Of a DNA stretch of 64,000 nt, positions 11,466-16,631 are shown piece after piece. The first letter of the stretch is position 1. Each line of letters begins with the position of its first letter. Below the pieces are notes generated by a model. The model was not told the origin of the DNA and searched no databases. It saw nothing but the letters and a program-made list of their open reading frames with translations. Location of the stretch: positions 62,001-126,000 of the forward strand of contig NZ_AJXU01000031.1 in NCBI RefSeq assembly GCF_000264315.1, read 5' to 3'. Made by a program: the position numbers and the translations under genes. The DNA is from Rhodanobacter fulvus Jip2 (lineage in GTDB: Bacteria; Pseudomonadota; Gammaproteobacteria; Xanthomonadales; Rhodanobacteraceae).

Positions 11466-11906
<441 letters not shown>

Positions 11907-11996: not shown

Positions 11997-12044
11997 ACAC
12001 AAGTTATTGGGTTGACCGCACCCAACGTACCCGATATGTTGTGT
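11997..12044 (+). promoter_or_regulatory. nrdA promoter with paired NrdR-type boxes
   Basis: Two 16-mers, ACACAAGTTATTGGGT (11997-12012) and ACCCGATATGTTGTGT (12029-12044), each match the published NrdR box acaCwAtATaTwGtgt at 13 of 16 positions. They lie exactly 32 bp apart, about three helical turns, which is the usual NrdR arrangement. A promoter TTGACC (12012-12017), 17 bp, TATGTT (12035-12040) is interleaved, with box 2 covering the -10. Transcription would start near 12047, at the edge of the cobalamin riboswitch. NrdR represses nrd genes when dATP is high (family knowledge). Confidence 0.75.
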
Positions 12045-12046
12045 GC

Positions 12047-12240
12047 GTCGGTGCCCGGCCGACACAACATCGGTCGGGCTTAAAAGGGAATCCGGTGTAA
12101 ATCCGGAACTGCCCCGCAGCGGTAAAGCGGAAACGAACACCTCCACATGCACTGGTCCTCTGCGGCCGGGAAGCGGGGGCAAGTAGGTGGATCGCCGTGA
12201 TCCTCGTCCGCAAGTCCGAAGACCTGCCGGCACATCGGGA
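12047..12240 (+). promoter_or_regulatory. Cobalamin (B12) riboswitch upstream of nrdA
   Basis: All conserved B12-box elements are present in order. They are the 5' GGTGCC of P1, AAAAGGGAATCCGGTG with its partner ATCCGGAACTGCCCCGC, AGCGGTAAA, the GGGGGCAAGTAGGTGG region, and the terminal GCAAGTCCGAAGACCTGCC with the 3' side of P1. The aptamer binds adenosylcobalamin or a related form. It sits about 130 bp before nrdA in a long leader. A small hairpin (CGGGAC/GTCCCG, about 12236-12253) follows directly, but no classical poly-U terminator is seen, so the control mode (translation or Rho) is undecided. B12 should repress this B12-independent reductase. Confidence 0.95.
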
Positions 12241-12369
12241 CGAACATGTCCCGGTGCGTAGTGACGGTTTCCGCGGGGAAGCACGTCGTGGCGCGGGCCT
12301 TTGTCGGGGCCGCGTGCGGCTCCCCCGGCATCCATCGCTTCAGGCCCTGCGCGCGGGAGCAGGTGTTTG

Positions 12370-14844
12370 ATGTCCATGCCGGAGCCACCTGCCATGCAAG
12401 CCCTCGATACCGCCGAACGCGAGCGCGCCATCGCGCCCGCCGAATCCCCTGTCGCCATCGACGAAACATCCGCGGCCGAAACCGCGTTCACCCTGACCCC
12501 GCCGCACAGCGCGGCGTCGATGCACGTCACCAAGCGCAATGGCGGCCAGGAAGCCGTCGACGTCAACAAGATCGTGCGCGCCGTGACGCGCAGTGCCGAA
12601 GGCCTGCACGGCGTCGACCCGCTGCGCGTGGCGCTGAAGACCATCGGCGGCCTGTACGACGGCGCCACCACGCAGGAGCTGGACCAGCTCTCGATCCGTA
12701 CCGCCGCCTCACTGACCGCCGAGGAACCGGAATACGGCCAACTTGCCGCGCGTCTGCTCGGCGCGTACATCGACAAGGAGGTCAGCGGCCAGGAAATCCA
12801 GAGTTTCTCGCAGTCGATCGCGCGCGGCGCCGAGTTGGGCATCCTCAACGACCGCCTGCGCGATTTCGTGGCCACCAACGCGCGCAAGTTGAACGACGCG
12901 ATCGACCCGCTGGCCACGCGCCGCTTCGAGTACTTCGGCCTGCGCACCGTGTACGACCGTTACCTGCTGCGCCATCCGCAACGGCGGCTGGTGATCGAGA
13001 CGCCGCAGCATTTCTTCATGCGCATCGCCTGCGCGCTGGGCGGCAACGAGATCGGCGAGACGCTCGAGCTTTATCGCCTGCTGTCCTCGCTGGAATACAT
13101 TGCCAGTTCACCCACCCTGTTCAACGCCGGCACCTGCCACGAGCAGCTCAGCTCCTGCTACCTGCTGGATTCGCCGGTCGATTCGCTGGAGTCGATCTAC
13201 GACAAGTACGCCGACGTCGCCAAGCTGTCGAAGTTTGCCGGCGGCATCGGCCTGGCCTATTCGCGGGTGCGTTCGCGCGGCTCGCTGATCCGCGGCACCA
13301 ACGGTCATTCCAACGGCTTGCTGCCCTGGTTGAAGACGCTGGACGCCTCGGTGGCCGCCGTGAACCAGGGCGGCAAACGCAAGGGTGCGGCCTGCGTGTA
13401 TCTGGAAACGTGGCACGCCGACATCGAGGATTTCCTGGAGCTGCGCGACAACACCGGCGACGACGCGCGACGCGCGCACAACCTCAACATCGCCAACTGG
13501 ATTCCCGACGAATTCATGCGCCGGGTCGAGAGCGACGGCGACTGGTCGCTGTTCGATCCGAAGGTGGTGCCGCACTTCGTCGACAGCTGGGGCGAGACGT
13601 TCGATGCCGCGTACCGCAAGGCCGAAGCCGATGGCCTGGGCGTAAAAACGGTGAAGGCACGCGAGCTCTACGCCCGCATGATGCGCACGCTGGCGCAGAC
13701 CGGCAACGGCTGGATGACGTTCAAGGACCGCTGCAACGCCACCAGCAATCAGACGGCCAAACTGGAAAACGTGATCCATCTGTCCAACCTGTGCACCGAG
13801 ATTCTCGAAGTCAGCTCGGTCAACGAGACGGCGGTGTGCAACCTGGGCTCGGTGAACCTGTCGCGGCACGTCGTCGATGGCGTGTTCAATTACGACCAGC
13901 TCGCCGCCACCGTGCGCACCGCCGTGCGCCAGCTCAATCGCGTGATCGATCTCAACTACTACCCGATCCCCACGGCACGCACGGCCAACATGAAGTGGCG
14001 ACCCGTCGGCCTCGGCGTGATGGGTTTGCAGGACGTGTTCTTCAAACTGCGCCTGCCGTTCGACTCGACCGAGGCACTGGCGCTGTCCACCCGGATTGCG
14101 GAGGAGATCTACTTCAACGCGTTGTCGCAGTCGTGCGAGCTCGCCGAGGGCGAAGGCATGCATCCCGGCTTCGCTGAAAGCCGCGCCGCAAATGCCGAAT
14201 TGCAGTTCGACTATTGGCCGAACACCACGCCGCATAACACGGCGCGCTGGGACGCCCTGCGCGAAAAGATCAAGCAACACGGCCTGCGCAATTCGCTGCT
14301 GATCGCGATCGCGCCCACGGCCACGATTGCGTCCATCGCCGGCTGCTACGAGTGCATCGAGCCGCAGGTCAGCAACCTGTTCAAGCGCGAAACGCTGTCC
14401 GGCGACTTCCTGCAGGTAAACCGCTACCTCGCCGACGAACTGAAGGCGCTGGGTTTGTGGACGTCCGAAATCCGCGACGCGATCAAGCTGGCCGAGGGCT
14501 CGATCCAGAACATCAACGCGATCCCCGAGCGCCTGCGCGCGATCTACCGCACCGTGTGGGAACTGCCGCAGAAAGCGCTGATCGAACTAGCCGCCGCACG
14601 CGGCGCGTACATCGACCAGAGCCAGTCGCTGAACCTGTTCATGGAAAACCCGAACATCGGCCAGTTGAGCTCGATGTACATGTACGCGTGGAAGGCCGGC
14701 ATCAAGACCACGTATTACCTGCGCTCGCGCCCGGCCACGAAGATCGCCAAGACCACGGTGTCGGCGGCGCCCGACCAGGCGCAGGCCACCGCCGCGGTGT
14801 TTTGTTCACTGGAGAACCCGGAGTATTGCGAAGCCTGCCAGTAG
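12370..14844 (+). CDS. nrdA: NrdA, class Ia ribonucleoside-diphosphate reductase alpha subunit
   Basis: An 824-residue R1 subunit. An unusual N-terminal extension of about 55 residues precedes an ATP-cone (about 58-145, VTKRNGGQEAVDVNKI). The catalytic barrel keeps the redox pair Cys263 (SSC) and Cys490 (AVCNLG), the thiyl-radical Cys475 and Glu477 (NLCTE), and the radical-transfer tyrosines near the C-terminus (SSMYMYAWK). The tail ends in C820/C823, which are reduced by thioredoxin or glutaredoxin. It reduces NDPs to dNDPs with NrdB. The start ATG has AGGTG 6 nt upstream. Further ATGs at 12376 and 12394 are possible. The gene is preceded by NrdR boxes and a B12 riboswitch. Confidence 0.95.
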   Translation: MSMPEPPAMQALDTAERERAIAPAESPVAIDETSAAETAFTLTPPHSAASMHVTKRNGGQEAVDVNKIVRAVTRSAEGLHGVDPLRVALKTIGGLYDGATTQELDQLSIRTAASLTAEEPEYGQLAARLLGAYIDKEVSGQEIQSFSQSIARGAELGILNDRLRDFVATNARKLNDAIDPLATRRFEYFGLRTVYDRYLLRHPQRRLVIETPQHFFMRIACALGGNEIGETLELYRLLSSLEYIASSPTLFNAGTCHEQLSSCYLLDSPVDSLESIYDKYADVAKLSKFAGGIGLAYSRVRSRGSLIRGTNGHSNGLLPWLKTLDASVAAVNQGGKRKGAACVYLETWHADIEDFLELRDNTGDDARRAHNLNIANWIPDEFMRRVESDGDWSLFDPKVVPHFVDSWGETFDAAYRKAEADGLGVKTVKARELYARMMRTLAQTGNGWMTFKDRCNATSNQTAKLENVIHLSNLCTEILEVSSVNETAVCNLGSVNLSRHVVDGVFNYDQLAATVRTAVRQLNRVIDLNYYPIPTARTANMKWRPVGLGVMGLQDVFFKLRLPFDSTEALALSTRIAEEIYFNALSQSCELAEGEGMHPGFAESRAANAELQFDYWPNTTPHNTARWDALREKIKQHGLRNSLLIAIAPTATIASIAGCYECIEPQVSNLFKRETLSGDFLQVNRYLADELKALGLWTSEIRDAIKLAEGSIQNINAIPERLRAIYRTVWELPQKALIELAAARGAYIDQSQSLNLFMENPNIGQLSSMYMYAWKAGIKTTYYLRSRPATKIAKTTVSAAPDQAQATAAVFCSLENPEYCEACQ

Positions 14845-14860
14845 CGCATGAGGTGTCGCG

Positions 14861-15085
14861 ATGAAACGTTACCGGAATCTCGACGGCCACTCCGGTGTCA
14901 CGGCGTACGAATCCGGTGACGGCTTCATCCGCATCCGTTTCGTCAATGGCGATGTTTACGAATACACCGACAAGGCCACCGGCCGCGAACACATCGCGAA
15001 CATGCAAAAACTGGCACAAGCCGGCCTGGGGCTTTCCACCTATGTCAGCCGCTTCGTGCACGACGACTATGCGCGCAAGTTGTAG
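14861..15085 (+). CDS. Small KTSC-like protein between nrdA and nrdB
   Basis: A 74-residue soluble protein starting 16 bp after nrdA with a good GAGGTG Shine-Dalgarno. Its pattern SGVTAYESGDGFIRIRF, then NGDVYEYTDKATG, resembles the KTSC fold (short beta strands followed by a helix), and the C-terminus is helical (HIANMQKLAQAGLGLSTYV). The function is unknown. Position in the nrd operon under the same riboswitch suggests expression with ribonucleotide reductase, but a role there is inference. Confidence 0.7.
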   Translation: MKRYRNLDGHSGVTAYESGDGFIRIRFVNGDVYEYTDKATGREHIANMQKLAQAGLGLSTYVSRFVHDDYARKL

Positions 15086-15094
15086 TGCGTGCCA

Positions 15095-15122
15095 CGTCAT
15101 TCCAGCGTTCGCTGGGATTACG
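15095..15122. repeat. Single REP-like palindrome, GTCATTCCAGCG family
   Basis: CGTCATTCCAGCG, a 2-base loop, CGCTGGGATTACG. It lies 9 bp after the small KTSC-like gene and 9 bp before the GIY-YIG stop codon. It is related to the paired elements at 15455-15553 and in the 42-43 kb triplication. Confidence 0.8.
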
Positions 15123-15130
15123 TGCTGGGT

Positions 15131-15427
15131 TCAGTCGCAAATCTCCGCGTACAAATCACGCCAGTACGGATTGGACTTCTCGATGAGCTCGATCTTCCAG
15201 ATGCGCTTCCATGCCTTGATCGCCTTTTCGCGGGCAATCGCGGATTCCATCGTTTCGTGCAGTTCGAACCAGACGAGGTCGTGTACGTGATGCCGCCTGG
15301 TGAAACCCTCGCCCACGTTGCTTCGATGCTGCCAGATGCGCGCTGGAAGGTTGGAAGTAACCCCGGCGTACAGCGTGCCGTTGCGCCGGCTGGCGAGCAG
15401 GTAGACGCACGGCTGGCGTTCCCTCAT
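15131..15427 (-). CDS. Solo GIY-YIG nuclease-domain protein
   Basis: A 98-residue single-domain GIY-YIG protein of the YhbQ/UPF0213-like group. Core features are VYLL (Tyr9), LYAGVT (Tyr20), the catalytic Arg30 (LPARI), His34, Glu68 (AREKAIK) and Asn86. These are the residues that build the one-metal nuclease active site. Family members are small endonucleases of uncertain role. The gene is antisense to its surroundings, inserted between nrdA/KTSC and nrdB, and bracketed by palindromic repeats of one family. This suggests insertion with the repeats, or mobility linked to them (inference). No Shine-Dalgarno is obvious. Confidence 0.88.
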   Translation of the reverse strand: MRERQPCVYLLASRRNGTLYAGVTSNLPARIWQHRSNVGEGFTRRHHVHDLVWFELHETMESAIAREKAIKAWKRIWKIELIEKSNPYWRDLYAEICD

Positions 15428-15454
15428 CCCGATCTTCTCCGCGCCCCTTCAACC

Positions 15455-15553
15455 CCGTCATTCCAGCGAACGCTGGAATCCAGCGCCCTCGGTTTCTGCC
15501 GTGGCAACGCGTAGGCAGAAGCCACTGGATCCCAGCTTTCGCTGGGATGACGG
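15455..15553. repeat. Paired REP-like element, GTCATTCCAGCG family
   Basis: Two palindromic units facing each other. Unit 1 runs from CCGTCATTCCAGCGAACGCTGGAATCC. Unit 2 runs to ATCCCAGCTTTCGCTGGGATGACGG. About 40 bp lie between them. The whole could fold into a long cruciform or hairpin. It lies between the GIY-YIG start and nrdB. Confidence 0.85.
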
Positions 15554-15605
15554 TCAAGAAAGCGTCCGCGCCTCACCGGTTGCGACCCACCCAAGGAAAA
15601 CACCC

Positions 15606-16631
15606 ATGTCCGCCCAACCCACCCGCAACGCCCACATTCTCGACCCGGGTTTCGAACTCACCCTGCGCCCGATGCGCTACCCCGGTTTCTACGAGATGTA
15701 CCGCAACGCGATCAAGAACACCTGGACCGTCGAGGAAGTGGATTTCTCGATGGACACGAGGGATCTGGACACGAAGATGTCCGCCGCCGACCGCCATCTG
15801 ATCCGCCGCCTGGTGGCCTTCTTCGCCACCGGCGACACCATCGTGTCGAACAACCTGGTGTTGAACCTGTACCAGCACATCAACGCGCCGGAAGCGCGCA
15901 TGTACCTTTCGCGCCAGCTGTACGAGGAGGCGCTGCACGTACAGTTCTACCTGACCCTGCTGGATACCTATATCCCCGATCCGGCCGAGCGCAACGCCGC
16001 GTTTGCGGCGATCGAGACGATTCCGTCGATCCAGCAGAAGGGCGCGTTCTGCTTCAAGTGGATCGACTCGATCCAGGGCCTGCGCCGACTGGAGACGCGC
16101 GCACATCGGCGCCAGTTCCTGCTCAACCTGATCTGCTTTGCCGCCTGCATCGAAGGCCTGTTCTTCTACGCCGCGTTCGCCTACGTGTATTACCTGCGTT
16201 CGCGTGGTTTGCTGCACGGACTGGCGGCCGGCACCAACTGGGTGTTCCGCGACGAGAGCTGCCACATGGCATTCGCCTTCGACGTGGTACGCACCGTGCG
16301 CGAACAGGAGCCGGACCTGTTCGACGCGGACATGCGCGCCCAGGTCGAGCAGATGATGGAGGAGGCGATCGCCTGCGAAACCCAGTTCGCCGAGGACGTG
16401 CTGTCCGGCGGCGTGGCCGGCATGTCGGTGAAGGACATGCGCCAGTATCTCGAGTACTGCGCCGACCAGCGCTTTGCGCAACTCGACATGCCGAAAAAGT
16501 ACGGCGCGAAGAACCCGTTCGACTTCATGGACCTGCAGGACGTGCAGGAGCTGGCCAACTTCTTCGAACGCCGCGTCTCGGCCTACCAGGTCGGTGTACA
16601 GGGCGAGGTGGCGTTCGATATGGCGTTTTGA
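15606..16631 (+). CDS. nrdB: NrdB, class Ia ribonucleoside-diphosphate reductase beta subunit
   Basis: A 341-residue R2 protein. Di-iron ligands and radical site are intact: Asp77, Glu108 and His111 (EALH), radical Tyr115 (HVQFY), Glu183 (CIEG), and Glu217 with His220 (ESCH). NrdB generates and stores the tyrosyl radical used by NrdA and needs oxygen (family knowledge). The ATG of MSAQPTRNAH has AAGGA 8 nt upstream. An in-frame upstream extension is translated repeat and is rejected. About 520 bp and an antisense GIY-YIG gene separate nrdB from the KTSC gene, so it is either read through from nrdA or has an unseen promoter. Confidence 0.95.
   Translation: MSAQPTRNAHILDPGFELTLRPMRYPGFYEMYRNAIKNTWTVEEVDFSMDTRDLDTKMSAADRHLIRRLVAFFATGDTIVSNNLVLNLYQHINAPEARMYLSRQLYEEALHVQFYLTLLDTYIPDPAERNAAFAAIETIPSIQQKGAFCFKWIDSIQGLRRLETRAHRRQFLLNLICFAACIEGLFFYAAFAYVYYLRSRGLLHGLAAGTNWVFRDESCHMAFAFDVVRTVREQEPDLFDADMRAQVEQMMEEAIACETQFAEDVLSGGVAGMSVKDMRQYLEYCADQRFAQLDMPKKYGAKNPFDFMDLQDVQELANFFERRVSAYQVGVQGEVAFDMAF

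What the first reader, a model, noticed from the sequence alone, without database searches (positions are those of the whole stretch)
11997..12370. Dual NrdR and cobalamin control of class Ia nrdAB
The sequence shows two NrdR-like boxes exactly 32 bp apart interleaved with TTGACC-17-TATGTT, and directly after the predicted start a complete B12 riboswitch in front of nrdA. A B12 riboswitch before a B12-independent reductase is known in a few lineages (for example the Streptomyces nrdABS operon). It implies that the genome also has a B12-dependent class II reductase (nrdJ). Having both controls packed within about 250 bp gives an OR-type shutoff by dATP and by cobalamin. The expression platform has no poly-U terminator, so the mode is open.
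Basis: partly seen in the sequence, partly recalled or inferred. Interest (0 to 1): 0.75.

Follow-up and report, generated by a model that had tools for sequence, protein, structure and literature searches.

The report
Vitamin B12 and dATP switches before nrdA
The gene for a B12-independent DNA-building-block enzyme sits behind two likely off-switches, a repressor site that answers to dATP and an RNA that senses vitamin B12, in a bacterium that also has the B12-dependent version of the enzyme; this is a well-preserved example of a known arrangement with some new detail in the RNA.

Summary
Window 11997-12394 carries two NrdR boxes 32 bp apart over a sigma-70-like promoter, then a full cobalamin riboswitch (RF00174, 115.7 bits) in front of class Ia nrdA. 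The box pair outscores all 60 shuffles. The genome encodes NrdJ (class II, with an intein), NrdR, MetH, and two further cobalamin riboswitches, before btuB and metE; CobQ gave no match. Correction: nrdA starts at ATG 12394. The promoter and 32-bp register persist in 22 of 22 aligned leaders; 49 of 80 nrdA loci carry the riboswitch. It co-occurs with nrdJ in gammaproteobacteria (41/3/1/11 of 56), but the tree offers too few independent changes. Both elements at nrdAB are in print for Propionibacterium and, from two papers, Streptomyces. I found no description of the leader anatomy: a P13/L13 hairpin complementary to L5, and a second covarying CGNGGG-apex hairpin some 70-95 nt downstream in 53 of 81 nrdA leaders; two such hairpins occur in 4 of 9 metE and 0 of 23 btuB leaders. 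Translational OFF is the likeliest mode, unproven.

The parts
11997..12012 (+). NrdR box 1 (ACACAAGTTATTGGGT); its last base is the first base of the -35
   Evidence: 13/16 to consensus; pair score above all 60 shuffles; same 32-bp register in 22 of 22 leaders, though box 1 of L022 scores under 11 of 16
12012..12040 (+). Promoter TTGACC-17-TATGTT
   Evidence: consensus scan; TTGAC and 4 of 6 bases of the -10 invariant in 22 sequences
12029..12044 (+). NrdR box 2 (ACCCGATATGTTGTGT), covers the -10
12032..12245 (+). Cobalamin riboswitch aptamer (RF00174); the RNA itself probably starts near 12046-12048 (inference)
   Evidence: 115.7 bits; own covariance model finds it in relatives
12112..12117 (+). 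L5 loop CCCCGC of the aptamer, kissing half
   Evidence: sequence; CTGCCCCGCA found in all 50 leaders listed
12263..12287 (+). Hairpin A, taken as P13/L13: apex GCGGGG complementary to L5
   Evidence: pair counts are biased, since A was picked by its pairing
12317..12330 (+). Candidate anti-SD strand (GGCTCCCCCGGC region), can pair with the SD or with the 3' arm of hairpin A
   Evidence: duplex energies -18.7 and -17.8 kcal/mol; the A-B segment is the main SD partner in only 1 of the 7 Dyella leaders
12340..12370 (+). Hairpin B (core CCTGCGCGCGGGAGCAGG 12346-12363), second CGNGGG-apex hairpin
   Evidence: covarying stem across 12 distinct sequences; enrichment over shuffles
12381..12384 (+). 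Shine-Dalgarno GGAG of nrdA
   Evidence: GG.G invariant in 22 of 22
12394..14844 (+). nrdA, class Ia ribonucleotide reductase large subunit with ATP-cone (816 aa)
   Evidence: TIGR02506 719.3 bits over cut-off 341.05, scanned as 12370-14844; PF02867, PF00317, PF03477
15606..16631 (+). nrdB, small subunit
   Evidence: PF00268 275 bits, scanned as 15567-16631; start codon chosen by eye

Best explanation
This is the control region of the B12-independent class Ia reductase in a probably B12-scavenging, Rhodanobacter-like bacterium that also has the B12-dependent class II enzyme. Step 1 (sites shown, action inferred): when dATP is high, NrdR binds the two helix-phased boxes covering -35 and -10 and blocks transcription initiation. 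Step 2 (structure shown, action inferred): transcripts that do start begin at or next to the aptamer's P1. When adenosylcobalamin binds, L5 kisses L13 of hairpin A, P13 is held, and the downstream anti-SD strand is free to pair with the nrdA Shine-Dalgarno, so translation is off. Without B12 the 3' arm of hairpin A can take the anti-SD strand and release the SD. Either signal alone lowers nrdA. With B12 present the cell relies on NrdJ. The confidence given is for the two-sensor OFF control; the translational step alone I put near 0.55.
For: Riboswitch, boxes and promoter. A 15-17 bp spacer between NrdR boxes represses in a reporter test (PMC12051234, passages); here it is 16. NrdJ, NrdR, a BtuB-like receptor, MetE and MetH found; NRDD and CobQ gave no match in the genome. 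The three cobalamin riboswitches found sit before btuB, metE and nrdA. Conservation: 22 leaders; 49 of 80 loci. L5/L13 complementarity. Competing duplexes in the window leader: P13 -14.7, anti-SD:SD -18.7, hairpin A 3' arm:anti-SD -17.8 kcal/mol. Riboswitch with nrdJ: 41 both, 3 riboswitch only, 1 nrdJ only, 11 neither in 56 gammaproteobacterial genomes.
Against: No expression or binding data. Forcing hairpin A on or off does not change computed SD accessibility in the window (0.05 both ways), nor in a consistent direction over 22 leaders. With hairpin A forced, the A-B segment is the main SD partner (mass 0.5 or more) in 7 of 18 leaders only. The 180-nt platform is not more stable than shuffles (z 0.47). 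Outside the gammaproteobacteria, 11 of 18 genomes have nrdJ without an nrdA riboswitch. On the NrdA tree only 2 independent pairs on starred branches are available, so the nrdJ link is not significant after phylogeny. A Rho-dependent step is not excluded.
Confidence: 0.8

Rival explanations
1. Same two sensors, but the riboswitch works mainly by Rho-dependent termination in the 150-nt platform rather than by hiding the Shine-Dalgarno.
For: No anti-SD shared by all relatives and no consistent change of SD accessibility with hairpin A; no terminator with a good U run, only a weak terminator-like score on hairpin B.
Against: No Rho site was tested here; the window leader itself has a strong anti-SD duplex.
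Confidence: 0.3
2. The riboswitch is a relic that no longer controls nrdA in this strain.
For: Three MAGs have the riboswitch without an NrdJ hit over the cut-off (L031, L036, L059).
Against: Full-length 115.7-bit aptamer, invariant core over 22 leaders, open NrdJ and BtuB frames. L036 has a partial NrdJ hit (386 bits, model 209-604, just under the cut-off of 400).
Confidence: 0.04
3. The NrdR boxes are chance resemblances around a promoter.
For: Each box departs from the recalled consensus at 3 of 16 positions.
Against: Pair score 26 against a maximum of 21 in 60 shuffles; no other pair with both boxes at 10 or more at 30-33 bp in the window; same register in 22 of 22 leaders; nrdR in the genome.
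Confidence: 0.02

Closest known systems
Streptomyces coelicolor nrdABS leader (B12 riboswitch, Borovok et al. 2006; NrdR boxes)
   Same: Class Ia operon with a B12 riboswitch (described in PMC4991794, passages) and NrdR boxes at the nrdAB promoter (PMC9110341, passages); class II NrdJ in the same genome.
   Different: Actinomycete; operon with nrdS. The 2006 paper was not held, so its platform was not compared.
Propionibacterium acnes nrdAB (PMC3848588)
   Same: NrdR box over the nrdAB promoter plus an annotated cobalamin riboswitch in the 5' UTR, with nrdRJ elsewhere (passages).
   Different: One NrdR box at nrdAB rather than a pair; much nrdAB transcription appears to end before the gene; nrdR is next to nrdJ there.
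Delta-proteobacterial nrdDG B12-elements (PMC545781)
   Same: B12-independent reductase under a B12-element in genomes with NrdJ (passages).
   Different: Class III nrdDG; no NrdR layer in the passages seen.
E. coli btuB-type translational cobalamin riboswitch
   Same: L5-L13 kissing loop stabilises P13 and promotes an RBS hairpin (summarised in PMC10653944, passages).
   Different: Here P13 ends about 93 nt before the SD, and a second L13-like hairpin B lies between. The E. coli leader itself was not compared here.

Membership tests
Cobalamin riboswitch (RF00174) | Score over Rfam gathering threshold along the full model | tested here: met
   115.7 bits against 31.5, full length
Cobalamin riboswitch (RF00174) | L13 hairpin downstream, complementary to L5 | tested here: met
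   GCGGGG apex against CCCCGC; L5 invariant, so no covariation test of the kissing pair
Cobalamin riboswitch (RF00174) | Binds adenosylcobalamin and changes expression | not testable with these tools
   needs in-line probing or reporters
NrdR regulon promoter | Two palindromic boxes about three helix turns apart over the RNAP site | tested here: met
   C4 and G13 present in both boxes by eye
NrdR regulon promoter | nrdR gene in the genome | tested here: met
   TIGR00244 201.4 bits over 124.65; PF22811 and PF03477
NrdR regulon promoter | NrdR binds with ATP plus dATP | not testable with these tools
   -
B12-independent isozyme controlled by a B12 riboswitch | B12-dependent counterpart in the same genome | tested here: met
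   NrdJ TIGR02504 565.7 bits over 399.95; likewise MetH for riboswitch-led MetE
B12-independent isozyme controlled by a B12 riboswitch | Riboswitch tracks nrdJ across genomes | tested here: inconclusive
   Raw association in 56 gammaproteobacteria, Fisher p 2.8e-8, but too few independent changes, and 11 of 18 other genomes have nrdJ without it
Translational OFF platform | Ligand state changes SD accessibility | tested here: inconclusive

The most novel reading that the evidence does not exclude
The nrdA leader, and some metE leaders of this family, carry a two-stage platform: hairpins A and B both show an apex (CGNGGG) that can pair at least in part with the single L5 loop, so one aptamer could act twice, early through A (on transcription, or on P13) and later through B, nearer the start codon. 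This would be an expression platform with two alternative kissing partners, found at B12-independent isozyme genes and not at the uptake gene btuB.
Probability: 0.15. Interest if true: 0.6.

Novelty: new member of a known kind. Interest (0 to 1): 0.36.

Why it matters
It suggests that combined dATP and B12 control of the class Ia reductase, in print for actinomycetes, is also a strongly conserved trait of Xanthomonadales-type bacteria. In this genome the cobalamin riboswitches found cover only uptake plus two isozymes, so it is a clean, testable case of cofactor-driven isozyme choice. The second L13-like hairpin gives a concrete feature to mutate in the platform.

Tried and rejected
1. Leader peptide after hairpins A or B: SD-like purines followed by start codons were looked at by eye in the leaders; no shared start codon was seen, so not adopted. 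2. CsrA-type sites at the loops: several hairpin B apices have no GGA, so not adopted (by eye). 3. Pairing of the P1 3' strand with the SD, proposed by the alignment fold: mostly invariant columns, and the wrong sign for an OFF switch; not adopted. 4. Forced P13 on/off folding: no consistent effect; reported as a negative. 5. Phylogenetic pair test: too few pairs. 6. NrdR boxes elsewhere: one box of 13/16 at L120:4524-4539 before nrdJ, no other non-overlapping site at 10 or more in L120:4201-4760; none at 10 or more in L123:2401-2700, upstream of nrdR. 7. The strict CGNGGG rule misses hairpins with variant loops, so 'none' or 'one' is a lower bound; btuB platforms are also shorter than most nrdA ones, which lowers their chance of a hit.

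Full report
What is there. The window lies in a genome of 3.88 Mb in 130 contigs, 99.94% complete. Its closest named NrdA relatives are Rhodanobacter sp. 67-28 (92% in the best segment) and FW104-R8 (91%), so it is taken as Rhodanobacter-like (inference). Between a P-II gene (11568-11906) and nrdA lie two NrdR boxes, a promoter, a cobalamin riboswitch and a platform of about 150 nt.

Is it more than chance. RF00174 scores 115.7 bits (E 2.7e-28). The box pair (13+13 of 16) is the best pair in the 64 kb; in 60 Markov shuffles of the window the best pair scored 17 to 21. In 22 aligned leaders (window plus 21 of the 80 fetched loci, chosen from Rhodanobacteraceae-type relatives) there is no gap between the boxes, TTGAC of the -35 and 4 of 6 bases of the -10 are invariant, and the aptamer follows at once. 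Box letters vary; box 1 of L022 scores under 11 of 16. The nrdA start shared by these is ATG 12394.

Genome context. One further large-subunit reductase was found, NrdJ. Its open frame holds an intein with splicing and LAGLIDADG domains. NRDD gave no match, so no class III enzyme of that family was found. The ATP-cone was found twice, in NrdR and in NrdA. NrdR is L123:2668-3180. Three cobalamin riboswitches were found: before nrdA, before a BtuB-like receptor (TIGR01779 594.4 bits, just under its cut-off 599.7) and before MetE (36.4 bits). MetH is present as two adjacent frames. CobQ gave no match. So the riboswitch set seen here is uptake plus two B12-independent isozymes, as expected for a scavenger (inference). 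One good NrdR box (13/16) lies about 190 bp upstream of nrdJ.

Distribution. A covariance model built from 20 leaders finds the riboswitch upstream of nrdA in 49 of 80 loci; 19 of the 49 were in the training set, 30 were not. Of the 31 loci without a hit, 26 were given to Rfam and none matched; 5 were not tested. Six loci with little or no upstream DNA were dropped before the nrdJ count. In the remaining 74 genomes: riboswitch and nrdJ 46, riboswitch only 3, nrdJ only 12, neither 13. Within 56 gammaproteobacterial genomes: 41, 3, 1, 11 (Fisher p 2.8e-8); in the 18 others: 5, 0, 11, 2. The three riboswitch-only genomes are MAGs, and one of them (L036) has a partial NrdJ hit of 386 bits, just under the cut-off. 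On the NrdA tree there are 5 changes of the riboswitch trait and 8 of nrdJ, and only 2 independent pairs on starred branches, so the raw association is not proof. Of 97 sampled genomes of the family, 96 have some cobalamin riboswitch.

Platform. Hairpin A (12263-12287) has an apex GCGGGG complementary to L5 CCCCGC; the 50 leaders listed share this L5. Hairpins with a CGNGGG apex number 91 in 50 nrdA platforms against 7.2 +/- 2.7 (maximum 15) in shuffles; 35 of 50 leaders have at least two against 0.55 (maximum 3) (a few overlapping motifs are counted twice). In 72 riboswitches (3 own, 29 best and 40 picked by me from the list), two or more such hairpins occur in 32 of 35 nrdA, 4 of 9 metE, 0 of 23 btuB and 0 of 5 other leaders; one occurs in 3, 5, 3 and 1. 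By the looser rule, 81 of 84 nrdA leaders have A, and 53 of these have a CGNGGG motif 70-95 nt downstream; for metE 9 of 9 and 4, for btuB 5 of 23 and 0. The 84 may include a species twice. Hairpin B has 12 distinct sequences: pairs 2, 3 and 5 are kept in 12 of 12 through changes on both sides, pair 4 in 12 of 12 with a one-sided change only, pair 1 in 11 of 12, pair 6 in 6 of 12; slid registers pair less (36/72, 25/72, 21/60, 28/48). L5 does not vary, so kissing by A or B cannot be tested by covariation.

Mode. The scan found no strong terminator after the aptamer; hairpin B scores weakly as one. In the window leader, P13, anti-SD:SD and hairpin A arm:anti-SD are competing duplexes of similar strength, as in the E. 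coli btuB scheme summarised in PMC10653944 (passages). Against it, constrained folding does not show SD release, the anti-SD partner lies between A and B (mass at least 0.5) in 7 of 18 leaders only, and the platform is no more stable than shuffles. I therefore give translational OFF as most likely, with Rho-dependent termination as the main rival.

Prior art. NrdR box plus cobalamin riboswitch at nrdAB is in print for P. acnes (PMC3848588, passages), and for Streptomyces from two papers together (PMC4991794 and PMC9110341, passages). B12-elements before a B12-independent reductase in genomes with NrdJ were reported in 2004 (PMC545781, passages), and isozymes of B12-dependent enzymes are a recognised class of cobalamin-riboswitch targets (PMC3766115, passages). 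The library searches listed no paper that by title or abstract start deals with this leader in Rhodanobacteraceae or with a second L13-like hairpin; two searches listed 20 of 35 and 20 of 64 papers, and most subscription papers are not held, so this is weak evidence of absence.

Noticed in passing
L120:4730-8014 (G000:C48): nrdJ holds an intein (about residues 345-716 of P0001) with a LAGLIDADG domain; by eye its last residue before the downstream Cys is Gln, not the usual Asn. Five of 74 relatives searched (G097, G098, G111, G122, G167) show NrdJ pieces about 1.1 kb apart in one frame, as here.
   Followed up: partly
window 14845-15605: nrdA and nrdB are about 760 bp apart, with a small frame after nrdA and a reversed GIY-YIG gene (15131-15427, PF01541) flanked, by eye, by palindromic repeats. 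Of 79 relatives with nrdB, 5 (L012, L017, L025, L031, L032) have a GIY-YIG homologue in the same gap.
   Followed up: partly
L120:4524-4539: One NrdR box (CCACAACATCTTGTGT) about 190 bp before nrdJ, without a good partner box.
   Followed up: partly
L032:3077-3373 and L059:3144-3385 (- strand): Back-to-back cobalamin riboswitches: a second one on the opposite strand just upstream of the nrdA riboswitch.
   Followed up: no
L064, L074, L076, L080, L083: The nrdA riboswitch also occurs in loci named as Myxococcota and Acidobacteria, while the Myxococcus and Corallococcus loci L067, L071 and L077 keep NrdR-like boxes but have no riboswitch.
   Followed up: partly
L066: A record named Comamonas sp. 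KCTC 72670 has a 9.0 Mb genome and an NrdA that groups with Myxococcus vastator; the name looks wrong.
   Followed up: no
G000:C4:18023-21893: MetH is encoded as two adjacent frames.
   Followed up: no
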